Shown here: positions 1 to 64,000 of the stretch, in pieces | Numbering within the stretch: the first letter of the stretch is position 1 | How the letters are laid out: every line of letters starts with the position of its first letter | Source: Thiomicrospira sp. WB1 | GTDB lineage: Bacteria > Pseudomonadota > Gammaproteobacteria > Thiomicrospirales > Thiomicrospiraceae | Direction: 5' to 3' | Assembly (NCBI RefSeq): GCF_001507535.1 | Contig: NZ_LQBN01000002.1 | Location: forward strand, 1-64,000 | DNA: 64,000 bases | Notes under the pieces: model-generated | Databases searched by the model: none | What the model was told of the DNA's origin: nothing | What the model saw: the letters and a program-made list of their open reading frames with translations, nothing else | Position numbers and translations under genes: made by a program

Positions 1-76
1 CGAACTCAGAAGTGAAACGTCTCAGCGCCGATGGTAGTGTGGGAGGTCCCATGTGAGAGTAGGTCATCCCCAAGCT
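1..76 (+). rRNA. rrf: 5S ribosomal RNA, 3' part
   Basis: The first ~76 bases match the 3' two-thirds of a bacterial 5S rRNA, including the conserved CGAACTCAGAAGTGAAAC and GATGGTAGTGTGGG segments and the GAGAGTAGG segment. The 5' part lies outside the window. The exact 3' end is estimated by analogy with E. coli 5S. This is the end of an rRNA operon, immediately followed by a terminator. Confidence 0.93.
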
Positions 77-12857: not shown

Positions 12858-14129
12858 ATGAATAGGCGTCAACTTTTACAGGGCTTGGCTGCGTGGGCCA
12901 CCGGTACACTGTTTACTCCGGCACTGGCCAATACGCGCTATGTGTGTCCAATGCATCCGCAAATTGTCCAAGATCACCCAGGTACCTGTCCCATCTGCGG
13001 CATGGATTTGGTGCAAAAGAAGCTTGAAACCACCCAAGAAACCCCGGTGATTTCCGGGCAATCAGGCGGGACGGACTCAGCGAAACAGGCCTTTTCGGTT
13101 CGGACTCAGCGAATCGAACGCACCCCCCTCTGGAAATACATCGAAACGTTTGGGCAGGTACAGGCGGATCAAACGCGTTTGCGACATGTCCATCCTTTGA
13201 CGGAAGGGTGGATTTATGATCTTCAAATTCGTGCCGATGGGGATCGAGTGACGGCAGAGCAGCCGCTGTTCTGGATCTATTCCACCGAGCTATTGGCGGC
13301 GCAGCAGGATTATTTGTTGGCATTACAGCGTCAGTCATCTGGGCAGTCTGGTGCTCGGTCGGTGGTTCAGGCGGCCAAAAGCCGCCTGCGTCATTTGGGC
13401 ATGGCTGAAAAAACCTTGCGCACGCTGACCCAAAAACGCGCCGTAATTCAACGTGTGCCCTATCTGGCGCCCCAATCCGGTGTCGTTCAAAAACTGAGGG
13501 TTCAAGAAGGCATGTATGTCAGCCCACAAGTCGAAATGTTTCAGATCGTGGACCTGTCTCAAGTGTGGGTGCAGGCACAAGTGTTGCCGTTGCACCAGGC
13601 CTGGTTAAAAAACGGTTTGACGGTGGAGGTTTCAACGGCGGCTTATCCAGGTCAGCACTGGGAAGGACGGATTGATTACATCGAACCCGAATTGGACCCT
13701 GTGACACAGGCAAAAAGCGCGCGGATCGTGCTGTCCAATGAACAGGAACAACTGGCACCCAACATGGCTGCAGACGTTGTTATTTATGGCGGTCCAAAGC
13801 GCAATGTTCTGGCGGTTCCGCTGGAAGCGGTGATTGATGATGGGCGCCAGGCGCGGGTGGTCACGCGACTGGAGTCCGGTGGATTTCAGGTGAAACCGGT
13901 TGACACTGGCATGCAGACGCAGGGCTGGGTGGAAATTCTCTCCGGTTTGAACGAGGGCGATGACGTGGTCGTTTCCGGTCAGTTCCTGATTGATTCGGAA
14001 AGTCGAATTCAGTCTAACCTGAACCGTATGAATGAGGTCAGTGAGGATGCTGAACAGGAGGCGATCACCCCCATGGATCATCAGAGTTCAGAGGGCGAAA
14101 ACGGTCAGGAGGTGACGCATGATCACTAA
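12858..14129 (+). CDS. cusB: Efflux RND adaptor (CusB-like) with N-terminal heavy-metal-binding domain
   Basis: 423 aa. A signal peptide (RRQLLQGLAAWATGTLFTPALA) is followed by a short Cys/His metal-binding domain, YVCPMHPQIVQDHPGTCPIC then GMDLV. The membrane-fusion core begins around residue 85, with barrel-sandwich and beta-barrel parts (VQKLRVQEGMYVSPQVEMFQIVDLSQVWV). The tail is His/Glu rich. It connects CusA and the outer-membrane channel and probably passes Cu(I)/Ag(I). AAAGGA precedes ATG 12858; it overlaps the RND pump gene by 11 bp. Confidence 0.92.
   Translation: MNRRQLLQGLAAWATGTLFTPALANTRYVCPMHPQIVQDHPGTCPICGMDLVQKKLETTQETPVISGQSGGTDSAKQAFSVRTQRIERTPLWKYIETFGQVQADQTRLRHVHPLTEGWIYDLQIRADGDRVTAEQPLFWIYSTELLAAQQDYLLALQRQSSGQSGARSVVQAAKSRLRHLGMAEKTLRTLTQKRAVIQRVPYLAPQSGVVQKLRVQEGMYVSPQVEMFQIVDLSQVWVQAQVLPLHQAWLKNGLTVEVSTAAYPGQHWEGRIDYIEPELDPVTQAKSARIVLSNEQEQLAPNMAADVVIYGGPKRNVLAVPLEAVIDDGRQARVVTRLESGGFQVKPVDTGMQTQGWVEILSGLNEGDDVVVSGQFLIDSESRIQSNLNRMNEVSEDAEQEAITPMDHQSSEGENGQEVTHDH
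13594..13605. repeat. Copy 2 of the palindrome ACCAGGCCTGGT
   Basis: Exact copy inside the cusB-like gene, encoding part of HQAWLKN. Confidence 0.9.
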
Positions 14130-17100
14130 TATCATTCGCTGGAGTTTGCAGCAGCGAGGTCTGATTGTGTTGATGGCGCTGACACTCGGGGTGGCCGGTT
14201 GGTTTAGCTGGGAAAGAACGGCGGTGGATGCGATTCCAGACCTTTCGGATGTCCAGGTCATTGTCAAAACCAGCTATCCCGGTCAAAGCCCTCAGATCGT
14301 TGAAAATCAGGTGACCTATCCACTGTCCAGTCAGTTGATGGCGGTGCCTAAGGCCAAAACCGTCCGTGGGTATTCGTTTTACGGGGATTCGTACGTTTAT
14401 GTACTGTTTGAAGAGGGCACGGATCTCTACTGGGCTCGAAGCCGGGTGCTTGAGTACTTGAACCAGGCCGCAGACGATTTGCCCGAGACGGCCAAACCTG
14501 CCCTCGGACCGGATGCCTCGGGCGTGGGCTGGGTTTATCAGTACGCGTTGGTGGATCGTTCCGGGGAGCACGACCTGGCCAGCTTGCGCAGTCTGCAGGA
14601 TTGGTTTTTGAAATACGAATTGCAATCCGTACCGGGCGTGGCCGAGGTGGCGCCCGTTGGTGGAATGGTGCGTCAGTATCAGGTCATCGTTGATCCCAAT
14701 GCCTTGCGGGCTTATGACTTGCCTCTCAATCAGGTCACGCAGGCATTGCGACAAGCGTCGATGGAGAAGGGCGCGTCGTTGATTGAGCAAGGGCAGGCTG
14801 AATACATGGTGGCGTTGAAAGGGTATGTGAATGAACGTTCAGACCTGGCCAAAGTGCCGGTCGGGCGCACCGCCAGCCAAACGCCTGTTCTGCTCAAGGA
14901 CATTGCACGGATCGAGTTTGCCTCCGAGCCCCGTCGTGGGCTGGCTGAATTGAATGGCGAAGGCGAAGTGGTCGGGGGCATTGTTGTCATGCGTGCCGGT
15001 GCCAATGCCATGTCCGTCATTGAAGCGGTCAAGCAAAAACTGTCACGCCTCAAAGGCAGTCTGCCGCAAGGTGTTGAGGTTGTCGAAACCTATGACCGAA
15101 CTGGACTAATCGGCCGGACGCTTGAGACGCTGACGGATAAACTTTGGCAGGAAATGTTGGTGGTGCTGGGCGTTTCTTTGCTGTTTTTATGGCATCTACG
15201 TTCAGCGCTGGTGGCGCTGGTCGCCCTGCCTTTGGGAATACTGGGGGCCTTTGCGGTTTTGTATCAAATGGGGGTCAGCGCCAATATTATGTCGCTGGGC
15301 GGTATCGCCATTGCCATTGGGACCATGGTGGATGCGGCCATCGTGATGATCGAAAACGCTCACAAGCATTTGCTGGCATTCCAAAAGCGACATGGTCGTC
15401 CGGCTGAAGGCGCTGAGCATTGGCGCTTGGTACAAACCGCGACCCAGCAAGTGGGGGCGCCGATCTTTGTTTCACTGTTAGTGATTGCGCTGAGTTTCCT
15501 GCCGGTGTTTGCTCTGCAGGAGCAGGCCGGGCGCCTGTTCAGTCCTCTGGCGCTGACCAAAACCTGGGCCATGGCGATGGCCGCCGGACTGGCCATTACG
15601 CTGGTGCCGGTTCTGATTGGTTATTTTATTCGTGGGCGCTTGCAGGACGAAGCGCATAACCCGCTCAATCGTGGATTAATCGCGCTTTACCAGCCTTTCT
15701 TACAGGTTTGTTTACGCTGGCCCAAAACCGTGCTGGTCATCACGGCAGTCCTGATGGTCACACTGCTTTATCCGTGGCAGAAAATGGGCACTGAATTTAT
15801 GCCAAAACTGGAAGAGGGAGATTTGCTGTATATGCCCACAACCTTGCCGGGACTGTCGATCGGCGCTGCACGGGATTTGTTGCAGCAAACCGATCAGATG
15901 ATTAATCAGTTTCCGGAAGTGGAAACGGTGTTTGGCAAAATCGGGCGCGCTGAGACGGCGACTGATCCTGCGCCGCTGACCATGATTGAAACCACGATTT
16001 CGCTTAAACCCAAGGATCAGTGGCGCGAAGGCATAACCTTGGAGGCGCTGATACAGGAATTGGATGCGGCGGTGGATGTGCCCGGTGTCAGTAACGCTTG
16101 GGTGCAGCCGATCAAGACACGCATCGACATGCTGTCGACGGGCATTAAAACGCCTGTGGGCATTAAAATTGCCGGTCCAGATTTGGCGACAATTCAGGAC
16201 ATTGGGACACAATTGGAATCGGTTTTGACCGATGTGGACGGTGTACGCTCGGTGTTTTCCGAACGTTCTCACGGCGGGCGCTATCTGGACGTGGTCCCTG
16301 ATCGAGAGGCGGCGGCACGCTACGGTTTGACCATGGCGCAATTGAGTCGTTTGTTGGCCACGGCCGTTGGCGGTCAGACGGTGGCTGAAACGGTGGAGGG
16401 CCGTGAACGTTATGGTATGAGTGTGCGCTTCCCGCAAAGTTGGCGGGATTCGAAACAGGCCTTGGAAACACTGCCCATCATCACGCCCAGTGGCGCGCAC
16501 ATTCAACTGGGTATGGTGGCGGACATTCAGGTTCGCACCGGCCCGGCGATGATCAAGTCTGAAAATGCTCAGTTAACAGGCTGGACATTTGTTGACTTGT
16601 CTCCAGAGGTTGATTTGGCCGGCTTTGTGGCCCAGGCCCGGCAAACCGTGTCCGAATCTTTGACCTTGCCTCAAGGGTATAGTTTGACCTGGTCGGGTCA
16701 GTTTGAACAGTGGCAACAGGCGAAGGCTGACCTGCTTTGGATGATTCCACTGGTGACATTGATCATCTTTGTGTTGCTTTCACTGGTGTTCCAACGCCTG
16801 CGAGAAGCCTTCATGATTCTGTCGGTGATTCCGGTGGCGTTATTGGGCGCGGTCTGGTTTGTCTGGTGGCTTGATTATGATTTTTCTGTGGCCGTGGCTG
16901 TGGGCATGATTGCACTGGCAGGTGTGGCGGCGGAATTTGGCGTGGTCATGATGATCTACTTGAAAGAGGCGATCCGTCAGGCTCAAGCCGATGGTGAATT
17001 GGGCAGTCAAGCTCAATTAAGGGCCGCGATTATTCGAGGCGCAGTTCAGCGTGTGCGTCCAAAAGCGATGACCGTGAGCGTGATTGTGATCGGTCTGTCG

Positions 17101-17295
17101 CCGATTATGATCGGTGGCGGAGCGGGGTCGGAAGTCATGCAACGCATTGCGGCGCCAATGATTGGTGGCATGATTTCGGCACCACTGGTATCGATGGTGC
17201 TGCTGCCAGTGCTTTCCCTGTGGGCCTATCGGGCCTGGCCGCAGCAGGCGGGTGAGAGCCAACAAAAGGAGAGTTCGCATGAAAACATGGATTAA
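14119..17295 (+). CDS. cusA: Heavy-metal RND efflux pump (CusA-like)
   Basis: 1058 aa, full length for HME-RND pumps, with twelve transmembrane helices expected. Hallmarks are the N terminus IIRWSLQQRGLIVLMALTLG, the helix-4 motif GTMVDAAIVMIENAHKH, the periplasmic EEGDLLYMPTTLPGLS and DMLSTGIKTPVGIKI. These favour the monovalent-cation (Cu/Ag) branch rather than Co/Zn/Cd, though I cannot run a tree. An excellent AGGAGGTG site precedes ATG 14119. It overlaps the outer-membrane gene by 17 bp. Confidence 0.94.
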   Translation: MITNIIRWSLQQRGLIVLMALTLGVAGWFSWERTAVDAIPDLSDVQVIVKTSYPGQSPQIVENQVTYPLSSQLMAVPKAKTVRGYSFYGDSYVYVLFEEGTDLYWARSRVLEYLNQAADDLPETAKPALGPDASGVGWVYQYALVDRSGEHDLASLRSLQDWFLKYELQSVPGVAEVAPVGGMVRQYQVIVDPNALRAYDLPLNQVTQALRQASMEKGASLIEQGQAEYMVALKGYVNERSDLAKVPVGRTASQTPVLLKDIARIEFASEPRRGLAELNGEGEVVGGIVVMRAGANAMSVIEAVKQKLSRLKGSLPQGVEVVETYDRTGLIGRTLETLTDKLWQEMLVVLGVSLLFLWHLRSALVALVALPLGILGAFAVLYQMGVSANIMSLGGIAIAIGTMVDAAIVMIENAHKHLLAFQKRHGRPAEGAEHWRLVQTATQQVGAPIFVSLLVIALSFLPVFALQEQAGRLFSPLALTKTWAMAMAAGLAITLVPVLIGYFIRGRLQDEAHNPLNRGLIALYQPFLQVCLRWPKTVLVITAVLMVTLLYPWQKMGTEFMPKLEEGDLLYMPTTLPGLSIGAARDLLQQTDQMINQFPEVETVFGKIGRAETATDPAPLTMIETTISLKPKDQWREGITLEALIQELDAAVDVPGVSNAWVQPIKTRIDMLSTGIKTPVGIKIAGPDLATIQDIGTQLESVLTDVDGVRSVFSERSHGGRYLDVVPDREAAARYGLTMAQLSRLLATAVGGQTVAETVEGRERYGMSVRFPQSWRDSKQALETLPIITPSGAHIQLGMVADIQVRTGPAMIKSENAQLTGWTFVDLSPEVDLAGFVAQARQTVSESLTLPQGYSLTWSGQFEQWQQAKADLLWMIPLVTLIIFVLLSLVFQRLREAFMILSVIPVALLGAVWFVWWLDYDFSVAVAVGMIALAGVAAEFGVVMMIYLKEAIRQAQADGELGSQAQLRAAIIRGAVQRVRPKAMTVSVIVIGLSPIMIGGGAGSEVMQRIAAPMIGGMISAPLVSMVLLPVLSLWAYRAWPQQAGESQQKESSHENMD

Positions 17296-18622
17296 AACAA
17301 CAGGGCTGATGGTTGTCACTTGGGTGACGATGCCTCTGGCCCTGGCCAATGCTTCCGACGAACAGACGCCCATGACGCTGGCACAGTGGCTTGACTGGGG
17401 CGTGCAATACAATGAGACGCTTTCTGCACAGCAGGCAACGGTGGATGCCATGCGTCATCGGTCTGTGGCCACCCAGTCTCAAATGGGGCCGCAAGTGGCA
17501 CTGCGATCGGAACTCAGTTATCGGGTGATGGATAAAGCCGATTTTGGTCGAACTGCCAACCGGCTGGAACTGACCCAAGCTTTGTATCGACCGGATCTGA
17601 AAGCCCGGGAGCGCTTGGCTCAAGCGCAAACCGAAGAATTACAGGCGGTCCTCGCCCGGAAACAGCTTTCCGTACGTCAGCAGCTGGCCAATGCGGTTCT
17701 GGATCGCTTTGAGGTGCGGGTACGCAAAGGTTACCTGATCCGTGCCGGGGCGTTGCTGGCTGACATGGAACAGCAATTGGCGCAGCGTCAGTCATTGGGG
17801 CAGCAACGTCACAGTGACTGGGCGGGACTGCAAGCTCGACTGGCAGAAAACCAAGTGCGATTGGCAGAGAATCAACAAGCCGAAGCCGATGTGATTGCAC
17901 GTCTTTCGTCTTTGCTCAGCGGCCTGTCAGCGCAACAGCGTTTGACTCTGCGACATGCAACGCTGGACTGGCAAACGTCTTTGAAGGTCATTTCAAGTCA
18001 GGTGCCCTCCGATTGGTCGGTTTCGGCGAGTGACCCAGATTGGTCGCAGTGGGTTCAGGCTCATCCTGACATGACAACATTACGCTGGCAGACCGATCAA
18101 ACCAAAGCACAAGGGAATTTGGCACGTAGTTTAAGCGCCCCCAAAGTCGAAGCCTTTGGCGGTTGGGTTTATAATGAATCCGACGGTTACTTTTATGATG
18201 ACATGCAAGGCGGACTGGGCGGCATTCGCGTGGAATGGCCCTTCTATCGGCATGGCGAGCAGGATGCCCGTCTGGCCAGTGCTCGTTCCGAGCAACAGGC
18301 ATTGAACAGGCTGCGCCATCAGCGTCGTTCTGAACTGATGGCGCAAGCGGACCGTGCCTGGCACAACCTTCGGTCTCAACAAGCGGTGGTGAAGGCCTCG
18401 AATACTTTGTTGAAGGCCCGAAAAGACCGTGTGCAAGCGTTGTCGCAGGACCTTGAAACCGAACAGGGATCCATCCTGGCGTTGCTGACGGCACAGATTG
18501 ATGAAGCCGCGGCACACCGTGACCGTCAACTGGCGCAGGCAAAACGCTTGCGTCAATGGGTGGCGCTGGCCAGTGCGCTGGGGCGATTTGACTTGATTCA
18601 GGGGGCTGAGAAAGCGCTCTGA
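17279..18622 (+). CDS. TolC-family outer-membrane efflux channel (CusC-like)
   Basis: 447 aa. A signal peptide (GLMVVTWVTMPLALANAS) is followed by long alternating helices with TolC-type repeats (ALYRPDLKARERLAQAQTEEL). The C-terminal half holds the second structural repeat (VEWPFYRHGEQDARLASARSEQQAL). It should form the outer-membrane exit duct for the CusBA pump. AAGGAGAG precedes ATG 17279, which lies inside the 3' end of cusA. No lipobox was noticed, unlike E. coli CusC. Confidence 0.88.
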   Translation: MKTWIKTTGLMVVTWVTMPLALANASDEQTPMTLAQWLDWGVQYNETLSAQQATVDAMRHRSVATQSQMGPQVALRSELSYRVMDKADFGRTANRLELTQALYRPDLKARERLAQAQTEELQAVLARKQLSVRQQLANAVLDRFEVRVRKGYLIRAGALLADMEQQLAQRQSLGQQRHSDWAGLQARLAENQVRLAENQQAEADVIARLSSLLSGLSAQQRLTLRHATLDWQTSLKVISSQVPSDWSVSASDPDWSQWVQAHPDMTTLRWQTDQTKAQGNLARSLSAPKVEAFGGWVYNESDGYFYDDMQGGLGGIRVEWPFYRHGEQDARLASARSEQQALNRLRHQRRSELMAQADRAWHNLRSQQAVVKASNTLLKARKDRVQALSQDLETEQGSILALLTAQIDEAAAHRDRQLAQAKRLRQWVALASALGRFDLIQGAEKAL

Positions 18623-18647
18623 AGCGCCTAACAATCAAGGGCAGGGT

Positions 18648-19454
18648 GTGAAATTTTTTAAACTGGTGCGTCTCAGTGGTGTTCATTTCTGGAAAGCCGA
18701 TGGCATGGATCACGCCATGGTTTTGGCGTTTACCTCTCTTTTGGGGTTGGTGCCGGTTCTGGGATTGCTGTTGTCATTGTTTTCAGCGTCGACCTGGTTT
18801 GAGGATTTGAGTGAACGGTTGGTGACGGCACTGGTCCATTGGTTGACACCGTCGGCGATGCCGGTGGTGGAAACTTACCTGAATACGTTTTCTGAAAAAG
18901 CCACCAGCCTGACCGGCATCAGCGCCTGGCTGATGGCGTTGACCAGTTTGCTTTTGCTTGCAAAAATTGATCAGAAAATCAATCATTTCTGGACGCACAA
19001 GCATCCCCGGCGCTGGTGGGTCAGTCTGTTGCATTATTTCGGTGTCAGTGTCGCCGGGCCGCTGGTATTGGCGCTGGCGCTGACCTTGCAGTCGTGGCTG
19101 GTGGCCTCGGGGCTGGCTAAGCTGTCGCCGATTCTGGCGCAATGGTTGCCTGCCAGCCTCTATCTGCTGGGACTTATGCTGCTTTATCGTTACGTTCCGG
19201 TGATGAAAGTCACTTGGAAAGAAGCTTTTTATGGCGCTCTGTTGGTGGCTGTGCTACTGGAAGGGCTGCAATACGGGTTTGGGGTGTATGTTTCTGTGTT
19301 TGGGACTTACAACCTGATTTACGGCGCGTTTGCAGCGGTGCCGTTTTTTCTGTTGTGGCTCTATGGGTTGTGGCTGGTCATTTTATTCGGGGCGGTCTGG
19401 GTGCGCACTCTGGGCCGGTTACGGCGTCGGCGTGAAGAACGGGTCGAACGGTGA
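18648..19454 (+). CDS. YihY/BrkB-family inner-membrane protein
   Basis: 268 aa, about six transmembrane helices. Hallmark regions are the DHAMVLAFTSLLGLVPVL stretch and FGTYNLIYGAFAAVPFFLLW. The family was once called RNase BN, but it is a membrane protein of unclear function. The GTG start at 18648 follows AAGGGCAGG. The C-terminal tail is very basic (RLRRRREERVER). It is convergent with the HprK-like gene, leaving 3 bp and no room for a separate terminator. Confidence 0.88.
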   Translation: MKFFKLVRLSGVHFWKADGMDHAMVLAFTSLLGLVPVLGLLLSLFSASTWFEDLSERLVTALVHWLTPSAMPVVETYLNTFSEKATSLTGISAWLMALTSLLLLAKIDQKINHFWTHKHPRRWWVSLLHYFGVSVAGPLVLALALTLQSWLVASGLAKLSPILAQWLPASLYLLGLMLLYRYVPVMKVTWKEAFYGALLVAVLLEGLQYGFGVYVSVFGTYNLIYGAFAAVPFFLLWLYGLWLVILFGAVWVRTLGRLRRRREERVER

Positions 19455-19457
19455 GGT

Positions 19458-20588
19458 TCAGGTGTTCAGTGCGTCCAGAATCAGGGCGGTGGCCCGATCA
19501 AAATTCAGTTGACCTTCCAAAACCCAGCAACGCAAATCGCCCAGGGCATTCAGGTAGCTTTGCGCATCCGGCTGAGTGCCGTTTTTGAGAAAATGGCCGG
19601 CCTTGTGTGACGCCGCAATGTTGGCAAAAAAAGGCCCGGGACTTTTGCTCAACGCCGGGAGCAGTTCAGGCGACTGAGCCAAGGTGGTGATGCGCAGGCG
19701 CGTGGGCTCGGCCGCATCCACCGACCAGTTGAGCACAATCAGGGCATGCAACGGTGTCTCCATGCGAATGAAGTCCGGCCCGTAAAAGCGTTCAATCTCG
19801 ACGTCGTATTTCTGTTCCAGGCTTCGCAGCGCCTCGCCGGGGAGCTTGGCCAGCTCTGCCTGCGCTGTGTCTGAAAGCAGTGGTTTCAGCCGAGGGTTGT
19901 GCATAAGCGTGCCCGGGTTGACGCGAGGCCACTTGGGAATCCCGCGCATGCAAAATTCACCAGGCCTGGTGTCGGGGCGAATCAGCAGCCGATCATTGGA
20001 GACAAACGCCTGCCCCTGTTCCAGTAAATGCAGCATCAGAGTGGATTTTCCGCCGCCGGACAGCCCAGCGATGGCGAGTCCTTGATTCTGAATCTGCAGG
20101 GCGGCGCAATGCCCCAGCTGCCAGCCTTGGTTTAGGCAATGATTGAGGTATTGGGTTAAGGCAAAATTGATGATTTGGTTGGGGTGCTTTGTTACAGGTC
20201 CCAGCGCAGAGGGCTGGTCTGCGTTTTGCCAGAAAAGCATGCCGGTTTTGACTTTGTAAACCCAGCGCTCGTCCGGGGCCGGGTCAAAAATGGTGTCCTT
20301 GCGTCCGGTTTTTCCCGGTTCCCGCTGCCAGTCTTCCCATTGTTCCCCCATGCCCAGTGTGTCGGCTCCGTCCAGGGCGACAAGGCTCAATGTCGGTGGC
20401 TTATTCGATGGGGCCTCAGTCAGGCAGGGGGCAAAATAATCGCTCAGGATGCGGGCCAAGGCCGGTTGATCGGTGCAAATCCGTAACCGGGCGTCTGGCA
20501 ATGTCAGTGTCAGACAGTGTGTGGCGGTTTGTGCGCCTGAACGCAGCCGGGTGCGCAAGGTGTCGAGCGTCTCGTTGGCGGTGGTCAT
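19458..20588 (-). CDS. HprK-related kinase (GAK-system type B)
   Basis: 376 aa. A P-loop GLSGGGKST lies at about residues 175-183, preceded by GHCAALQIQNQGLAIAGL. It is followed by FVSNDRLLI, which matches the HPr kinase/phosphorylase nucleotide-site layout. The N-terminal half is not an HprK sensory domain I recognise. It resembles the 'HprK-related kinase B' described only from the GAK gene neighbourhood. The substrate is unknown; nothing in the window encodes HPr. It is the last gene of a six-gene minus-strand operon and overlaps the ATP-grasp gene by 4 bp. The palindrome copy at 19959 lies in it. Confidence 0.85.
   Translation of the reverse strand: MTTANETLDTLRTRLRSGAQTATHCLTLTLPDARLRICTDQPALARILSDYFAPCLTEAPSNKPPTLSLVALDGADTLGMGEQWEDWQREPGKTGRKDTIFDPAPDERWVYKVKTGMLFWQNADQPSALGPVTKHPNQIINFALTQYLNHCLNQGWQLGHCAALQIQNQGLAIAGLSGGGKSTLMLHLLEQGQAFVSNDRLLIRPDTRPGEFCMRGIPKWPRVNPGTLMHNPRLKPLLSDTAQAELAKLPGEALRSLEQKYDVEIERFYGPDFIRMETPLHALIVLNWSVDAAEPTRLRITTLAQSPELLPALSKSPGPFFANIAASHKAGHFLKNGTQPDAQSYLNALGDLRCWVLEGQLNFDRATALILDALNT
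19959..19970. repeat. Copy 3 of the palindrome ACCAGGCCTGGT
   Basis: Exact copy inside the HprK-like gene. On the coding strand it is read in a frame giving Thr-Arg-Pro-Gly-Glu, not Gln-Ala-Trp. Confidence 0.9.
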
Positions 20589-21481
20589 GCGCGTAACGTG
20601 TCCAGCACAAACTGAGTGTAGCGCTGGGCAATGTCCAGTTGCAGGCCTTCCTGTGCGCCTTTGAAGCCGCCGAAGGCAGACACTTCAAAACAGACCGGCC
20701 CGTCTTCGGTTTCGGCCATGTCAACGGTGGTGTAGCTCAAGTCAAATTGCGCCTGGGCCTGGCGGGCAATGGCAATGGTGTCATCACAAGGACTGGCCGG
20801 TGCGTATTTGCCACCGGCATAAATGGTGGTGTTCCAGCTTTTGTCTCCGCTGATGCGGGCGTAGGCCCCCAGATATTCGCCGCCCAGAAACACCAGCCCC
20901 ATGTCCTGACCGGGCAGATTTAATTTTTTCTGCAGGTAGAAAAATCCCTGTTTGTCATAGTAGGCCTGCAGTTGCTGTCTGAGCTTTTTGCTGCCGTCTT
21001 TGGCCTTGAGCACTTCCATTCCACGCGCTTTGGTGGAAAACAGGGGCTTGAGGATGGCTTCATCATAGTCTTCAACGGCCGTCAGCGCGGCGTCCAGATT
21101 TTCCGTGATCAGCGTGGGCGGCATGGGGACGTCCGCGCGAGTCAGTGAGATGGTGCAGCTCATGCGATCCACCAGACGGATGATTTCACTGGGCTTGGAG
21201 AAAACCTGAACCCCGCATTTTTCCACAAAGCGTAGGATCTCCAATCGATCAATCACGGTGGGGCTGTAGGTCTGAGATATTTTTTTGACCACAATCGCGT
21301 CCAGATCACACAGGCAGTGGTCTTGATAGGTCACGCGATTGCGCCCAAGGTCTGCGATGACTTGCTCGATGTCGATGACCAGTCGAAAGCCGGTCTGAGC
21401 TTCGATGGCATCGGCCAATACTTCGGTGGACCATTTTCCGGGAATGCCGACAACGCCGATTTTCAAGGAAGTTTCAGTCAT
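20585..21481 (-). CDS. ATP-grasp enzyme of the GAK-type operon
   Basis: 298 aa. An N-terminal Rossmann-like part (KIGVVGIPGKWSTEVLADAI) leads into an ATP-grasp fold: EAILKPLFSTKARGMEVL carries the nucleotide-binding Lys, and the acidic metal-binding stretch is VCFEVSAFGGFKGAQEGL. It resembles RimK-type ligases and the 'GAK system ATP-grasp' family. ATP-grasp enzymes usually make acyl-phosphates and join a carboxylate to an amine or thiol; the substrate here is unknown. It overlaps its neighbours by 8 and 4 bp, so co-translation with both is likely. Confidence 0.87.
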   Translation of the reverse strand: MTETSLKIGVVGIPGKWSTEVLADAIEAQTGFRLVIDIEQVIADLGRNRVTYQDHCLCDLDAIVVKKISQTYSPTVIDRLEILRFVEKCGVQVFSKPSEIIRLVDRMSCTISLTRADVPMPPTLITENLDAALTAVEDYDEAILKPLFSTKARGMEVLKAKDGSKKLRQQLQAYYDKQGFFYLQKKLNLPGQDMGLVFLGGEYLGAYARISGDKSWNTTIYAGGKYAPASPCDDTIAIARQAQAQFDLSYTTVDMAETEDGPVCFEVSAFGGFKGAQEGLQLDIAQRYTQFVLDTLRA

Positions 21482-23120
21482 GGTAGATCTCTCTGGGTAC
21501 TCGGTAAGTGTGCAATTGTTCCGGGGGTAATTTCAACAGGGATTCCAGCAGGAAGCGCGCACGGAATTGCATGGCTTTGGCATGACTGCTGTCAAGGACG
21601 AACCGGGTCGAGGTCAGAAACGACCGGCTCAATCCCAATGCCAGGCGAAGTTCATAGTCCGTATCACCGATGGTTTCCGCCCAGTTACGCCCGTAATCGT
21701 ATATGGCGTGCATGGTCTGTGCAATCAGTTTCCGGTCCTGGGGGCCAAAGCGGTTCAACCGATAGCAGGAGACCATCAGCACCGACAGATCCTGGACATA
21801 ATCCTGATAATCCGAGCGGTGCAAATCAATGAAATTGATTTCCTTGGACAAGGGATCATACAGGATGTTGTCCAGATTGAAATCGCCATGGATATAGACC
21901 GCCGCAGGCGTGCTTAGGGTCGCTTCAAATGCCTCCGCCTGTTCAATTAAGGTTTTCAGGTCGGCGTTTTTGAGGCCGTTGATGTTGACGCTTTGAGATT
22001 CCAGTTCGGGATGGACCTGATAAACGTCTTTGAGTCGTTTTTTTAGTTGGCGCATGAAGTGCGCCGGATGAACCGTTTCAATCCGGGTTTCCTGCCAGAT
22101 GTTTTCCAGGGTCTCGAACAGGGCGGCCAGCGCTTCGCGCAGGGCTTTTCGTTCCCGTTCAAGCAACAGTTTTTCCAACGTGTCCCCTGTGAGGTATTCA
22201 AACAACAAGGCGGCTTTGTTTCCACTGTTGTGGTACGAATACACTTTGGGGGCGATGCCGGGATAAATTTCATGCCAGCTTTCGATGCCGGTTTTTTCTT
22301 CTTTGAGCTTGGTTTTGTCACCGGCTTTGAACACGGCCAGCATTTCGCCTTCGGATTCTTCGGCCGACATGACGCCGGAAATGGTACAGCCGGATTTGGT
22401 TTCGCCCATGGCCCGGATGGTCAGCGCTTCTTCCAGTGGATCAAGCGACAGGGCAGAAAGCGTGGCTTCTAGAGAGTGGTAACGTTCGATCTGAATCATC
22501 TGGCCTAGATTGGCGGAGATGATGCCTTCGCCAATGCGAAGCAGTGCTTCGCCCAAACGGTTCAGGTCGCGTACGATGAAACTGGCGTTAAGCAGGGCGT
22601 CGGTCTGTTGGCCTTTGCGCAGGCGGTTCTGGTATTTTTTCAGTTGTGCCTGACAGACCTGGTCGATGCGTACCTGCAAACGGCAGATGTCAATGGCCAG
22701 CGTGGAAGCCTCCGCTTCAATCGCGGGTTCGATCAACTCCAGTCCGTTGGTCAGGTGTTTGAAGGTCGCACGCACGCGTTTTTTGGTCAGCAGGCGAAAC
22801 GCGGTTTTGGGGGCGTTGCGTGCCTGAAACACAATTTCCTGCAATTGACGGGACAGGGTTTTCAGACTGTGATTGATGTGGTCGTAGCTTTGCAACGTGA
22901 CCGGGTCTACCTCGGCGGTCTGATCCGCAAGGCGGGTGTGTTCGCTGATGCGTCGCAGCAGGTTGAGGTGGTGGTTGTCGATGTAATCCACCCGGCTCAA
23001 ACTCTGTTCGGCCCGAGCCAGATCGCCCGATTCCAGAAACGACTCAACCTGGTAAAGTTGTTTCTGCAGTTCCAGGGTCAGGAAACGCAGCGGTTCATAA
23101 AGGGCGGCGGGCTGTTGCAT
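21474..23120 (-). CDS. PhoU-like domain fused to an aminoglycoside phosphotransferase-type kinase
   Basis: 548 aa. Residues 1 to ~230 are helical and PhoU-like (LTLELQKQLYQVESFLESGD, LRRISEHTRLAD). Residues ~255-520 form an APH/choline-kinase-like domain: a GTISG-type nucleotide loop region, the catalytic loop HGDFNLDN at 411-418 and the metal-binding Asp in FIDLHRSDY (about 432). The substrate is unknown. Kinases of this fold phosphorylate small molecules or proteins. ATG 23120 is 9 bp after the amphi-Trp gene, and the stop overlaps the ATP-grasp gene. The fusion is unusual; I know of no characterised homolog. Confidence 0.8.
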   Translation of the reverse strand: MQQPAALYEPLRFLTLELQKQLYQVESFLESGDLARAEQSLSRVDYIDNHHLNLLRRISEHTRLADQTAEVDPVTLQSYDHINHSLKTLSRQLQEIVFQARNAPKTAFRLLTKKRVRATFKHLTNGLELIEPAIEAEASTLAIDICRLQVRIDQVCQAQLKKYQNRLRKGQQTDALLNASFIVRDLNRLGEALLRIGEGIISANLGQMIQIERYHSLEATLSALSLDPLEEALTIRAMGETKSGCTISGVMSAEESEGEMLAVFKAGDKTKLKEEKTGIESWHEIYPGIAPKVYSYHNSGNKAALLFEYLTGDTLEKLLLERERKALREALAALFETLENIWQETRIETVHPAHFMRQLKKRLKDVYQVHPELESQSVNINGLKNADLKTLIEQAEAFEATLSTPAAVYIHGDFNLDNILYDPLSKEINFIDLHRSDYQDYVQDLSVLMVSCYRLNRFGPQDRKLIAQTMHAIYDYGRNWAETIGDTDYELRLALGLSRSFLTSTRFVLDSSHAKAMQFRARFLLESLLKLPPEQLHTYRVPREIYHD

Positions 23121-23129
23121 GCAAGGGTC

Positions 23130-23426
23130 TTAGGATTTTTTCTTTTTGGCTTTTTTGGGGTCAATGAACAAAGGCGTTTCTTCAAAGTCATCACTTTGAT
23201 CCGATGACCACTGAATTTTGATGTTCAGGCTTTGTGCGTTTTTGCTCTGGTCGGCCTTGATCTTGAGATTGGCGAGTTTCTCCGGCTTGAGCGTAATGGT
23301 GTCTTCTTCATCCGACACCTCAATCGCGCCTTTTTTGAACCCCTGTATGACCGCTTTCAGGTAACAGACAATGGCGTCTTTGTCCTGAAGTGACTCGTGT
23401 TCAAACCGTTTGTTCTTTTTGCCCAT
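23130..23426 (-). CDS. Amphi-Trp domain protein
   Basis: 98 aa. It shows the amphi-Trp pattern: an initial FEHESLQDKDAIVCYLKAVI, then FKKGAIEVSDEEDTITLKP, then LNIKIQWSSDQ with the defining tryptophan. The ends are strongly basic (MGKKNKRF and KKAKKKKS). The family is small, of unknown function, and is best known from GAK-type gene clusters. ATG 23426 is chosen because GGAGGG lies just upstream. The start lies inside the phosphoesterase gene (26-bp overlap). Confidence 0.85.
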   Translation of the reverse strand: MGKKNKRFEHESLQDKDAIVCYLKAVIQGFKKGAIEVSDEEDTITLKPEKLANLKIKADQSKNAQSLNIKIQWSSDQSDDFEETPLFIDPKKAKKKKS

Positions 23427-24726
23427 GCGACCCTCCTGCATCATCCGATGAGAGATGATTGGGGTGGAATTGTTTCACCGCCGGGTAATCAGCGCTCAAT
23501 CCCTGAACCCGTCCATCTGAATGGAAAATTGTAACAGCTTCCCCCGGTGTTTGACGCTGCTTTTTGCGTCGGCAGTTGGCATTGAGTTGGGTGTCGCATT
23601 CGAAGTTGAGCAGGCCTTCACGCACAAACAGCTGTTGTCCGTTGGGGTGACTGCGATGACCGTTGACCATGGCATAAATGCGGCGTTCTTTCAGCAGACG
23701 AACCCCTCTGGGTGTGAGCGGGTAGTCTCCGGCGCGGTATTTGGTGCGGAAGGTATTGCCCAGTGCACTGTAATAAAGCTGAAAAATGCGGCCTTCCTGC
23801 AGTTGTTGGCGAAAGTGCTGGTTGATTTGATCCGGGCTCTGAACCTGAAGGCGCATGGCCATCTGATCGTCCAGTCCGGCGTGGCTGAAGCAGTAGCTGC
23901 CGCTGATATGCAGCAAATCGAGTGATTGAAAAAACCAACCGAAGGCGCCTTCGGGATTCAAAAGACAGTCTTTGGCCCATAGGGTGGCCTGATAGAGTTC
24001 ACGCAACCCCAGTCCGGCTTCGGCGCAGGCCTGGAAAAAATCGGTCTGCTTTTGCTTGATGCGTTTGATTTCCTTGTCGATTTTGCTCTTAGGCATAAAT
24101 CCCTGCGCCCAGGCTGGAAAGAACTCAAACCACTCCGGAGGCGGCAACAGGGCACGACGGATGTCGGCTTCGGTCATGGGCGGCATAGTGTCAGTCAGGT
24201 GTTTGCGTCCATAGGCATGAATTTCAGCAAACAACGGCACGGTTTTTCGCCCCATGCGGATGAAAAAGTGTGCCTGACGCCAATCATTCATTACATCCAA
24301 CGCCCGTAGCCCGGCGTAGATGCGCATGTCATGGTTGCCCGCCAGCAGAATCACATCAGCGTGTTGTCGGTAGAGTTCGCCGATCAGCGACAAAAGAGCC
24401 AGATTGCTTGGGCCTTTGTCGAAACAGTCCCCGCCGATGATGATCTGGCTGCGTTGTCCTGCGGCCGTTAACCGAAGGTGGTTGAGTGCGCTGTCGCGTG
24501 TGATCAGGCCACTTAACTTGAGCGAGCGCAGAAACGCATCGGCATCCGCGTGCAGGTCGCAGAAAAAGTAAGTGTCCTGCTCAGGGCTCATCCACTGGTC
24601 ACCGCTGATGCCCCAGTGCGGTCCCGGCGAGGCCTCAAGCGCCTGTATCCACTGATGACACGGGCGTGAGGGCTCGGCCAGGGTGGGCTGCCAGGTTTCG
24701 GTTTGCAATGCGTTGGCAAAAGACAT
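23401..24726 (-). CDS. Calcineurin-like metallophosphoesterase
   Basis: 441 aa. Motifs in order are FCDLHADADAF (D-x-H, about 57-59), GGDCFDKGPSN (98-108) and GNHD (130-133), then SGSYCFSHAGLDD and VNGHRSHPNGQ near the C terminus. This is the dinuclear metal site of PPP-like phosphatases. ATG 24726 is favoured over the longer reading by GAGGAG six bases upstream. It follows the histidine phosphatase gene after 14 bp and overlaps the amphi-Trp gene. It may remove the phosphate that the downstream kinases add, by inference. Confidence 0.87.
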   Translation of the reverse strand: MSFANALQTETWQPTLAEPSRPCHQWIQALEASPGPHWGISGDQWMSPEQDTYFFCDLHADADAFLRSLKLSGLITRDSALNHLRLTAAGQRSQIIIGGDCFDKGPSNLALLSLIGELYRQHADVILLAGNHDMRIYAGLRALDVMNDWRQAHFFIRMGRKTVPLFAEIHAYGRKHLTDTMPPMTEADIRRALLPPPEWFEFFPAWAQGFMPKSKIDKEIKRIKQKQTDFFQACAEAGLGLRELYQATLWAKDCLLNPEGAFGWFFQSLDLLHISGSYCFSHAGLDDQMAMRLQVQSPDQINQHFRQQLQEGRIFQLYYSALGNTFRTKYRAGDYPLTPRGVRLLKERRIYAMVNGHRSHPNGQQLFVREGLLNFECDTQLNANCRRKKQRQTPGEAVTIFHSDGRVQGLSADYPAVKQFHPNHLSSDDAGGSHGQKEQTV

Positions 24727-24740
24727 GGTAACTCCTCGGG

Positions 24741-25487
24741 TTAATCCGGTGTGTGTAGGGGGTCCGTCTGGTGTCGGTGTTTCCAGTGACCGCTGAGTTG
24801 AACCCATTGTGGGCTTTGATCGGGTTGATAACGAAACAGCAACGGTCGGGCATGATAGAGCGAACACTGATGAACGGTTTCAAAGCGGAGAACGCCCATC
24901 AGATAAGCCGCGTGTCGAAAGCTCGCACCATGACCGATGACCACTTTGAGCGTATTGGTTTGAAGGGTGTCTGCCAGAGGCTGACACACCTTTTCCAGGG
25001 TGGTTTTGACCCGGTGACCGGCTTCAATCAACGATTCGGCGCCTTCAAATGGGAGTCGGTAGTGACTGTCGGCTTTCCAGCCCGGAGGCGGCACTGTATG
25101 GCGAGGGTCTGCCGACAGGGCCTGTTCGATCTGCTTAACGGTCAGGTTGGCTGCGGCCCCCACCGAGCGTTCGTGCAGGTGAGGCACGCTCACAGGATGG
25201 AAAGCCCGGTCGGTGGCATGACCTGTCACCGGAAAGGGAGCTTGATGTTCGTTCAGCCAGGCGGCCATCACTTGAGCGGTTTGCCAGGCCCGAAGACTGG
25301 TGGAGCACACGATGGCGGGATCCAGCACAAAGCCTTTTTCCAGCGCCCAGTGCATCAGCGTTTCTGCCCCAGCACGTGCCTGTGTTTCACCTTGCTCGGT
25401 CAGTCCCCAGGGTTGAAGCGCACTGGGGGTATCCGGCCATTGGTGGTAATCGCTGTGGCGTAAAAACGCCATGACCAAAGAATTCAT
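24741..25487 (-). CDS. Histidine phosphatase family protein (SixA/PGM-like)
   Basis: 248 aa. The catalytic motif is FLRHSDY, with Ser in place of the usual Gly of RHG; the second catalytic His is in VVIGHGASFRHAAY. A conserved Arg occurs in STSLRAWQTAQ. These enzymes remove phosphates from small molecules or phosphohistidine. It is the first gene of the six-gene operon. Start is uncertain: ATG 25487 is used, while TTG 25496 and ATG 25472 are alternatives. None has a strong ribosome site. Confidence 0.82.
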   Translation of the reverse strand: MNSLVMAFLRHSDYHQWPDTPSALQPWGLTEQGETQARAGAETLMHWALEKGFVLDPAIVCSTSLRAWQTAQVMAAWLNEHQAPFPVTGHATDRAFHPVSVPHLHERSVGAAANLTVKQIEQALSADPRHTVPPPGWKADSHYRLPFEGAESLIEAGHRVKTTLEKVCQPLADTLQTNTLKVVIGHGASFRHAAYLMGVLRFETVHQCSLYHARPLLFRYQPDQSPQWVQLSGHWKHRHQTDPLHTPD

Positions 25488-25575: not shown

Positions 25576-25605
25576 GCAAAACCAACCAGGCCTGGTTGGT
25601 TTTGC
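25576..25605. terminator. 30-bp perfect palindrome with ACCAGGCCTGGT core, likely terminator
   Basis: A perfect inverted repeat centred at 25590/25591 (copy 4 of the 12-mer at 25585-25596). Its flanks CAAAACCA and TGGTTTTG give T-runs for both strands. It lies 31 bp beyond the nrdB stop, where a terminator is expected. Confidence 0.65.
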
Positions 25606-63091: not shown

Positions 63092-64000
63092 TTACCCCAT
63101 ATGATCGTTCTGGCGGAATTCGTTGAGGCGGTGCAGCAGGAATTCCAGTTCGGCGTGTTTTTCTTCTTTTTCGTGGACTTTTTCTTCCAGGAAATCAACC
63201 ACCTGTTTGTGCAGTTTTAATTTGTTCAGGGCGTTGATATTGGTGATGCCACCCGGATTGAGGACGTTCACTTCCAGAATCTTGTCGCCGATCATGTCCA
63301 CACCGACAAAGTACAAGCCGTCGGCGGCCAGTTTGGGACCGATTTTGCGGCAGATTGCCATCTGTGAATCGGTCATTTTGTATTTGTGGGCGGTGCCGCC
63401 GATCTGAATGTTGGCGCGCACGTCGCCTTCGGGCGGCTTGCGGTTGTAGGCGCCGATGAATTTGCCGTTGAGCATCAGCACGCGCACATCGCCTTCTTCA
63501 GCGCCTTCGATGTATTCCTGCACAATCACATAGCTTTTGTCGGTGCTGTGGATGTAAAAATCCAGAATCGAGTTGATACTGGTCTGGGCGTTTTTTTCCA
63601 GCACAATTACGCCATGCCCGCCGGAGGCATTGAGCGGCTTGAGGATGACTTTGTCGCCGGGCATTTCGTCGATCATCTGACGAATGTAGTCCTTGTTTTT
63701 GGATACATGCGTGATCGGCAAATAGCTGTTGTGCGGGTCGTTGAAGGTGGTGGTGTAAAGCTTGTTGTTGGCTTTGCGAATGCCGTCCACGTCGTTGACG
63801 ATCACCGCCTGATTTTTCACCGAATCCAGAAAGTTGAACACCATCGGGTCAATCGGCGGGTCGCGGCGGATCATAATGCAGTCGAGCCCGTGCAACGGCA
63901 TCATCTGCAGTTGAAATTTGACCTTTTTGTAGAACTGGGTCATGTTGTCCGGGATTTTGTCCATCGGTTCGATGCGGCGCACATAGCCATGGGTCACGTT
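63092..64000 (-). CDS. gshB: Glutathione synthetase, partial (5' end outside window)
   Basis: About 302 residues visible. ATP-grasp marks: LDCIMIRRDPPIDPMVF, KVILKPLNASGGHGVIVL, GDVRVLMLNGKFIGAYNRKPP, GLYFVGVDMIGDKILEVNVLNPGG. It joins glycine to gamma-glutamylcysteine. The frame stays open to the window edge, so the N terminus is missing. The C terminus carries an extra charged helix (LEEKVHEKEEKHAELEFLLH) beyond E. coli GshB. Confidence 0.9.
   Translation of the reverse strand, partial: NVTHGYVRRIEPMDKIPDNMTQFYKKVKFQLQMMPLHGLDCIMIRRDPPIDPMVFNFLDSVKNQAVIVNDVDGIRKANNKLYTTTFNDPHNSYLPITHVSKNKDYIRQMIDEMPGDKVILKPLNASGGHGVIVLEKNAQTSINSILDFYIHSTDKSYVIVQEYIEGAEEGDVRVLMLNGKFIGAYNRKPPEGDVRANIQIGGTAHKYKMTDSQMAICRKIGPKLAADGLYFVGVDMIGDKILEVNVLNPGGITNINALNKLKLHKQVVDFLEEKVHEKEEKHAELEFLLHRLNEFRQNDHMG

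What the first reader, a model, noticed from the sequence alone, without database searches (positions are those of the whole stretch)
19458..25487. Six-gene phosphotransfer operon related to the 'GAK' system
All on the minus strand with overlaps or gaps under 15 bp: histidine phosphatase, metallophosphoesterase, amphi-Trp protein, PhoU-kinase fusion, ATP-grasp enzyme, HprK-like kinase. The last two and amphi-Trp match the GAK gene set known from family models only, with no known function. This copy lacks the CofD-like and XXXCH members I recall from GAK clusters and has instead two phosphatases and a PhoU-kinase. Three enzymes that could add phosphate or activate a carboxylate with two that could remove it suggest a regulated modification of an unknown substrate.
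Basis: partly seen in the sequence, partly recalled or inferred. Interest (0 to 1): 0.88.

Follow-up and report, generated by a model that had tools for sequence, protein, structure and literature searches.

The report
GAK kinase–phosphatase operon
Six adjacent bacterial genes, three enzymes that use ATP, two that strip phosphate and one small protein, form a conserved set of unknown purpose that may make and break down a phosphate-rich small molecule.

Summary
The six genes are real and correctly placed; three pass curated GAK models: ATP-grasp 443 bits (cut-off 300), HprK-B 285 (200), amphi-Trp 69 (31). The phosphatases and PhoU-kinase did not replace other members: all six cluster in 23 of 28 further proteobacterial loci, whereas CofD occurs in 6 of 22 GAK genomes. 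New here: one complete genome keeps amphi-Trp, PhoU-kinase, ATP-grasp and HprK-B without either phosphatase, suggesting 'writer' and 'eraser' modules. The ATP-grasp lacks three residues fixed in 39 of 39 RimK-type relatives. The histidine phosphatase ends in Asp in 26 of 27 copies. A SixA-Nudix fusion in 12 of 28 loci is closest, among solved Nudix structures, to diphosphoinositol polyphosphate phosphohydrolases (3 of 3 tested). Best reading: reversible synthesis of a multiply phosphorylated small molecule (0.4), probably not on inositol (synthase in 1 of 22 genomes). The substrate is unknown. It is a new member of a known, uncharacterised kind.

The parts
19458..20588 (-). HprK-related kinase B (376 aa): P-loop SGGGKST (177-183), N198-D199-R200
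   Evidence: TIGR04355 285.5 bits over cut-off 200; invariant residues in 27 sequences. Only a distant HPr kinase relative: TIGR00679 27.5 bits, cut-off 240
20585..21481 (-). GAK ATP-grasp enzyme (298 aa), RimK/MptN clan, with G195, T219 and S268 where 39 of 39 relatives have Arg, Asn and Asn
   Evidence: TIGR04356 443.3 bits over cut-off 300; closest solved RimK 4iwx E 6.9e-20; residue counts
21474..23120 (-). PhoU-fold domain (about 1-205) fused to APH-type kinase (about 230-548); H411-G-D413, N418, D432
   Evidence: PF01636 over cut-off; AlphaFold model matches PhoU 4q25 TM 0.81 and APH(3')-Ia E 3.9e-06
23130..23426 (-). amphi-Trp protein (98 aa), GAK subfamily with F8, H10, S12, D15, G33, W73
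   Evidence: TIGR04354 68.7 bits over cut-off 31; 25-sequence alignment; start 23426 preceded by GCAGGAGG
23401..24726 (-). Metallophosphoesterase (441 aa), PPP/ApaH-like; D57, H59, D100, N131-H132-D133, H282, H357 invariant
   Evidence: PF00149 27.3 over cut-off 21.5; weak solved relatives, PPP-type phosphatase 2zbm E 0.0044 and ApaH 2dfj E 0.0047; invariants in 12 sequences
24741..25487 (-). Histidine phosphatase (248 aa), phosphoglycerate-mutase-like, ending in a C-terminal Asp
   Evidence: PF00300 39.1 over cut-off 21.7; closest solved phosphoglycerate/bisphosphoglycerate mutases, weak (best whole-sequence E 8.6e-07); C-terminus
25578..25603 (-). 26-bp perfect palindrome between the upstream ribonucleotide reductase small-chain gene and the operon; possible terminator
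   Evidence: sequence printed, read by eye; not listed by the pattern scan

Best explanation
GAK is a reversible phospho-metabolite module. 'Writers' (PhoU-kinase, HprK-B and the altered RimK-type ATP-grasp, with amphi-Trp as a small partner or binding subunit) build a small anionic molecule carrying several phosphates, possibly with phosphoanhydride bonds. 'Erasers' (the mutase-like histidine phosphatase and the ApaH-like phosphoesterase, in many genomes helped by Nudix and SixA-Nudix enzymes) take phosphates off. The PhoU domain would tune the kinase. Shown here: the gene set, its conservation, families and residues, and the absence of both erasers in one complete genome and of one in another. 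Inferred: that the enzymes share one substrate, that it is small, and the order of steps.
For: Six genes conserved as a unit (23 of 28 loci), with correlated divergence (r 0.68-0.92 over 21 sequences; shared ancestry of the genomes not removed). G053 (one contig, rated 100% complete) keeps amphi-Trp, PhoU-kinase, grasp and HprK-B but has no match to either phosphatase at E 0.001; G419 lacks the histidine phosphatase only. Recurrent extra members are phosphate or phosphoanhydride hydrolases: SixA-Nudix in 12 of 28 loci, a small Nudix in 9 of 28. The fusion's Nudix half has DIPP1/2 as best solved Nudix in 3 of 3 searches (E 9.1e-08, 9.4e-08, 3.8e-10), with Ap4A hydrolases behind. The histidine phosphatase is closest, weakly, to bisphosphoglycerate-type mutases; 12 basic against 5 acidic charged residues are conserved in it, which would suit a multi-anionic substrate. 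Amphi-Trp lacks an invariant phospho-acceptor.
Against: No substrate is known and no neighbouring gene names one. Loci were found through the grasp, so erasers standing alone could not have shown up and the writer/eraser split rests on two genomes. The grasp's best curated relatives are amino-acid ligases (MptN 152.6 bits), so an amino-acid step is likely somewhere. HPr kinases act on a protein (general knowledge). MPE similarity to ApaH is weak (E 0.0047). The window genome has no SixA-Nudix fusion (only a SixA-like match to the first half) and no CofD; the small Nudix was not searched genome-wide. The kinase half conserves 12 basic but also 10 acidic residues, not placed in the active site: the model is poor there.
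Confidence: 0.4

Rival explanations
1. Protein-modification system: HprK-B phosphorylates a protein and the RimK-type ATP-grasp adds an amino acid to a protein C-terminus, for instance to the C-terminal Asp of the histidine phosphatase; MPE and the phosphatase reset the phosphate.
For: RimK is the closest solved relative of the grasp. The GAK histidine phosphatase ends in Asp in 26 of 27 copies although the tail before it varies; the exception, L070, ends in Cys 22 bp from a contig end after leaving the family sequence. That RimK acts on S6 and LysX on LysW at a C-terminal acidic residue is recalled, not from a call.
Against: G053 and G419 keep the grasp but have no histidine phosphatase. Amphi-Trp has no invariant acceptor: H10 24 of 25, S12 23 of 25. 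The grasp lacks Arg, Asn, Asn fixed in 39 of 39 RimK-type relatives. A free C-terminal Asp may instead serve the phosphatase's own active site.
Confidence: 0.25
2. Biosynthesis of a cofactor with a phosphate-linked, aminoacylated tail, like F420: kinases make the phospho-acid, CofD-like protein transfers it, the MptN/CofF-like grasp adds an amino acid.
For: GAK CofD-like protein in 6 of 22 genomes and beside the operon on two of three plasmids read; grasp scores MptN 152.6 and CofF 29.5 bits.
Against: CofD was not found in 16 of 22 GAK genomes, the window's included. The other F420 enzymes were not searched for.
Confidence: 0.1
3. Polyphosphate homeostasis module: PhoU, CHAD, Nudix and PPP-type phosphatases act on polyphosphate or polyphosphate-bound proteins.
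For: CHAD and ParA genes near GAK in 3 of 28 loci; CHAD binds polyphosphate (PMC6537752, passages); a DIPP-type Nudix hydrolyses polyphosphate (PMC11323792, abstract).
Against: Only 3 of 28, two of them in one family (f218); does not explain the ATP-grasp. Polyphosphate kinases were not searched for.
Confidence: 0.12
4. Anti-phage defence cassette.
For: Patchy distribution (8 of 274 class genomes) and occurrence on plasmids.
Against: No PADLOC hit below E 0.02; one scan of viral contigs with two patterns confirmed no relative.
Confidence: 0.03

Closest known systems
GAK system (NCBIfam TIGR04354, TIGR04355, TIGR04356, TIGR04357)
   Same: Grasp, HprK-B and amphi-Trp pass the curated cut-offs; the window's gene order is also seen in Hydrogenovibrio halophilus (L004) and G192 (L068)
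   Different: No CofD-like gene. The PhoU-kinase and the two phosphatases carry no GAK name in the three plasmid annotations read, though they are as constant as the named members
RimK / MptN / LysX amino-acid ligases
   Same: Clan and full-length similarity; D254 and E266 of the D...E-x-N pattern kept
   Different: Arg of D-x-R and two Asn, fixed in 39 of 39 relatives, are G195 (28 of 28), T219 (26 of 28; S, A once each) and S268 (28 of 28) in GAK
HPr kinase/phosphorylase (TIGR00679)
   Same: P-loop region, 72 residues, aligns
   Different: 27.5 bits against a cut-off of 240; no HPr kinase among solved matches at E 0.01
Inositol-pyrophosphate turnover of fission yeast (Asp1, Aps1)
   Same: ATP-grasp enzyme, histidine phosphatase and DIPP-type Nudix used around one phosphate-rich molecule (PMC11323792 abstract); RimK is named among structural relatives of Asp1 kinase (PMC9765450 passage)
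   Different: GAK grasp is nearer to ligases; inositol-phosphate synthase in 1 of 22 GAK genomes; the GAK phosphatase is branch 1 of its superfamily, Asp1's is a histidine acid phosphatase

Membership tests
GAK system | ATP-grasp over TIGR04356 cut-off | tested here: met
   443.3 against 300 bits
GAK system | HprK-related kinase B over TIGR04355 cut-off | tested here: met
   285.5 against 200 bits
GAK system | amphi-Trp protein over TIGR04354 cut-off in the same operon | tested here: met
   68.7 against 31 bits
GAK system | CofD-like protein TIGR04357 (member by name) | tested here: not met
   0 matches in own genome; 6 of 22 GAK genomes have it, 5 over cut-off, so it does not define the set
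   0 of 22 genomes, no positive control rang
RimK-type amino-acid ligase | RimK-like ATP-grasp domain PF08443 over cut-off | tested here: met
   42.8 against 21 bits
RimK-type amino-acid ligase | Curated subfamily scores (TIGR00768, MptN) | tested here: not met
   92.6 against 143.4; MptN 152.6 against 350
RimK-type amino-acid ligase | Arg of D-x-R, Asn of R/T-x-N...GG and Asn of E-x-N | tested here: not met
   Present in 39 of 39 relatives, in 0 of 28 GAK sequences
HPr kinase/phosphorylase | TIGR00679 cut-off | tested here: not met
   27.5 against 240 bits
PhoU domain | PhoU fold | tested here: met
   Model against 4q25 TM 0.81, rmsd 2.7; Pfam score below cut-off, 18.8 against 23.5
PhoU domain | Conserved metal-binding acidic motifs (recalled) | tested here: not met
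   Only E17 and R43 are charged residues conserved (93% or more) in the PhoU half
Inositol pyrophosphate system | Own source of inositol phosphate | tested here: not met
   PF01658 in 1 of 22 GAK genomes, 6 of 14 control genomes positive
Inositol pyrophosphate system | Enzyme activity on a pyrophosphorylated molecule | not testable with these tools
   needs biochemistry
Known defence systems | PADLOC model match | tested here: not met
   No match below E 0.02 for six proteins

The most novel reading that the evidence does not exclude
GAK is a bacterial counterpart of inositol-pyrophosphate signalling on a different scaffold: a kinase module with an ATP-grasp enzyme makes a phosphoanhydride-bearing messenger that reports phosphate or energy state, and a histidine phosphatase, an ApaH-like enzyme and DIPP-like Nudix enzymes erase it.
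Probability: 0.12. Interest if true: 0.92.

Novelty: new member of a known kind. Interest (0 to 1): 0.56.

Why it matters
GAK is a named but functionally blank system: five searches of the held open-access library on its names, model numbers or gene combination listed no paper. Defining its constant core, a writer-only reduction and a DIPP-like accessory enzyme turns 'unknown operon' into a testable claim: delete the erasers and look for a phosphorylated molecule that piles up. If that molecule carries pyrophosphate bonds it would be a new class of bacterial phosphate messenger.

Tried and rejected
Amphi-Trp as HPr-like phospho-carrier: unsupported, since H10 is Tyr in one and S12 is Ala in two of 25. 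Amphi-Trp fold: AlphaFold model mean pLDDT 43.5, not usable, so no fold search was made. HprK-B against solved structures: the eight matches were TALE proteins (Hax3) and an ABC transporter, judged artefacts. Phage origin: no viral contig confirmed. Defence: no PADLOC match. Promoter and terminator patterns: no more than in shuffles. Inositol as scaffold: synthase in 1 of 22 genomes. Grasp acting only on the phosphatase C-terminus: weakened, because two complete genomes keep the grasp without that phosphatase. In one search the SixA-Nudix gene was labelled HprKB by my script; sequences and models corrected it. The amphi-Trp gene of L007, L008 and L085 falls below the 45-bit line but is found. 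Papers PMC9239181 and PMC11836120 were seen as passages and not used.

Rows dropped: L074 left out of the family alignments because its PhoU-kinase and grasp frames are broken; L008, L070 and L086 left out of the correlation. The histidine phosphatase of L070 (211 aa) is the one of 27 that does not end in Asp; I think it is an assembly-end artefact but count it. Several of the 27 are near copies (L007, L008, L085; L084, L086; window, L004), so they are not 27 independent cases. Only 3 of 5 plasmid hits were read. The 39 relatives are those for which searches gave loci, not every match; two loci of broken GAK grasps (L016, L050) were not among them. L114 gave a wrong ORF and is ignored. Non-GAK amphi-Trp neighbours were viewed for 11 of its loci.
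Full report
Observation. The six ORFs lie on the minus strand with overlaps of 4, 8 and 26 bp and gaps of 9 and 14 bp. Three pass the curated GAK cut-offs: grasp 443.3 against 300, HprK-B 285.5 against 200, amphi-Trp 68.7 against 31 bits. The metallophosphoesterase, histidine phosphatase and kinase half pass Pfam cut-offs. The PhoU half is below its Pfam cut-off but matches solved PhoU by profile (E 9.7e-07) and by fold (TM 0.81, rmsd 2.7 to 4q25). The nearest named genome found is Hydrogenovibrio halophilus, 88% identical in the grasp. A 26-bp perfect palindrome at 25578-25603 (read by eye; not in the pattern scan) lies between the operon and the upstream ribonucleotide reductase small-chain gene.

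How the set is conserved. All were found through the grasp. All six genes sit together in 23 of 28; in one of these (L082) amphi-Trp is four genes away, and in another (L074) two reading frames are broken. Of the other five, three run into contig ends (L070, L071, L080); for L071 the missing phosphatases and amphi-Trp lie on another contig of the same assembly. L075 (G419) lacks the histidine phosphatase and L067 (G053) lacks both phosphatases; both genomes are single contigs rated 100% complete, and profiles find no copy elsewhere at E 0.001. In the class sample HprK-B occurs in 8 of 274 genomes. All 8 also have amphi-Trp over its cut-off and the GAK grasp (7 over cut-off, one in two pieces); one more, fragmented genome has the grasp alone. 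Amphi-Trp also occurs in 15 genomes of that sample without GAK (23 over cut-off in all). Pairwise distances of the six families correlate at 0.68 to 0.92 over 21 sequences, which fits joint inheritance but does not remove species ancestry.

CofD-like protein is found in 6 of 22 GAK genomes and not in this one. XXXCH was not found in 22, without positive control. Accessories within the fetched stretches are a SixA-Nudix fusion (12 of 28 loci), a small Nudix enzyme (9 of 28), CofD (8 of 28) and a CHAD-plus-ParA pair (3 of 28).

Three features not in the finding. First, the grasp. In 39 of 39 RimK-type relatives from the sampled genomes three residues are fixed: Arg in D-x-R, Asn in the R/T-x-N...GG segment and Asn in E-x-N. 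In GAK they are Gly195 (28 of 28), Thr219 (26 of 28, Ser and Ala once each) and Ser268 (28 of 28). For the inositol-pyrophosphate kinase Asp1 a paper reports that the Asn of its D-x-N motif touches the second metal and the gamma-phosphate yet is not essential for kinase activity, and lists RimK among its structural relatives (PMC9765450, passages); that the two Asn residues correspond is my reading of the motifs. Second, the histidine phosphatase ends in Asp in 26 of 27 copies, behind a tail of varying length and sequence, with both Asp codons and all three stops. The exception (L070) departs from the family 22 bp from a contig end. In the window the next gene starts 14 bp further on; in some loci the next start is not settled and could touch the stop. 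None of the other five proteins has a fixed last residue. Third, the Nudix half of the SixA-Nudix fusion has diphosphoinositol polyphosphate phosphohydrolases as its best solved Nudix relatives in 3 of 3 searches, with Ap4A hydrolases behind. The small Nudix has mixed MutT-like matches.

Mechanism. I favour a small-molecule cycle (0.4). G053 keeps the writers without erasers; the reverse could not be seen, because loci were chosen by the grasp. The erasers resemble enzymes that act on multi-anionic or phosphoanhydride molecules: bisphosphoglycerate mutase (weakly), PPP phosphatases and ApaH (weakly), DIPP and Ap4A hydrolases. Amphi-Trp has F8, G33 and W73 in 25 of 25 but no fixed phospho-acceptor, which speaks against it as an HPr-like substrate. 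Yeast handles inositol pyrophosphates with an ATP-grasp kinase, a histidine acid phosphatase and a Nudix enzyme, among others (PMC11323792, abstract; fold of the kinase). GAK carries a similar kit, but inositol-phosphate synthase occurs in 1 of 22 GAK genomes, so another scaffold would be needed. Which enzyme acts first, what the scaffold is and whether an amino acid is added are all unknown.

Against this: the grasp's best curated relatives are amino-acid ligases; conserved charged residues could not be placed, since the PhoU-kinase model is poor in the active-site loops; the window genome lacks the Nudix fusion and CofD. The protein-modification rival (0.25) draws on the C-terminal Asp but must explain two genomes with grasp and no histidine phosphatase.

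Novelty. GAK names exist in NCBIfam and in plasmid annotation. Five searches of the held open-access library with its names, model numbers or gene combination listed no paper. This copy is a member of that known but uncharacterised kind.

Noticed in passing
window 24741-24746 and 26 further copies: The GAK histidine phosphatase ends in Asp in 26 of 27 copies although the preceding tail varies; reason unknown.
   Followed up: partly
L067 (G053) and L075 (G419): Two single-contig genomes keep GAK without the histidine phosphatase; one also lacks the metallophosphoesterase.
   Followed up: yes
L099-L113: Non-GAK amphi-Trp proteins of the class sample form a distinct subfamily (RDIEK-Y...) without the GAK residues F8, H10, S12, D15; neighbours vary by eye.
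   Followed up: partly
L069, L080, L082: A CHAD-domain protein and a ParA-like ATPase lie side by side near GAK, a pair that might position polyphosphate granules.
   Followed up: partly
L072:16166-17968: CofD-like protein with a long N-terminal extension, membrane-spanning by eye, in a nine-gene GAK cluster.
   Followed up: no
G153 contigs C152 and C208: A second HprK-B and a second amphi-Trp copy in one genome, suggesting a duplicated GAK locus or a strain mixture.
   Followed up: no
window 63092-63997: A second ATP-grasp ORF, by Pfam a glutathione synthetase, unrelated to the operon.
   Followed up: yes
window 1-75: Partial 5S rRNA match cut by the window start.
   Followed up: no
window 24741-25487: The usual RHG motif of the phosphatase reads RHS here and in L004, RHA in L068.
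   Followed up: no
window 14119-19454: An RND efflux pump gene (AcrB family) and a BrkB-family membrane protein lie on the plus strand, convergent with the operon's 3' end.
   Followed up: no
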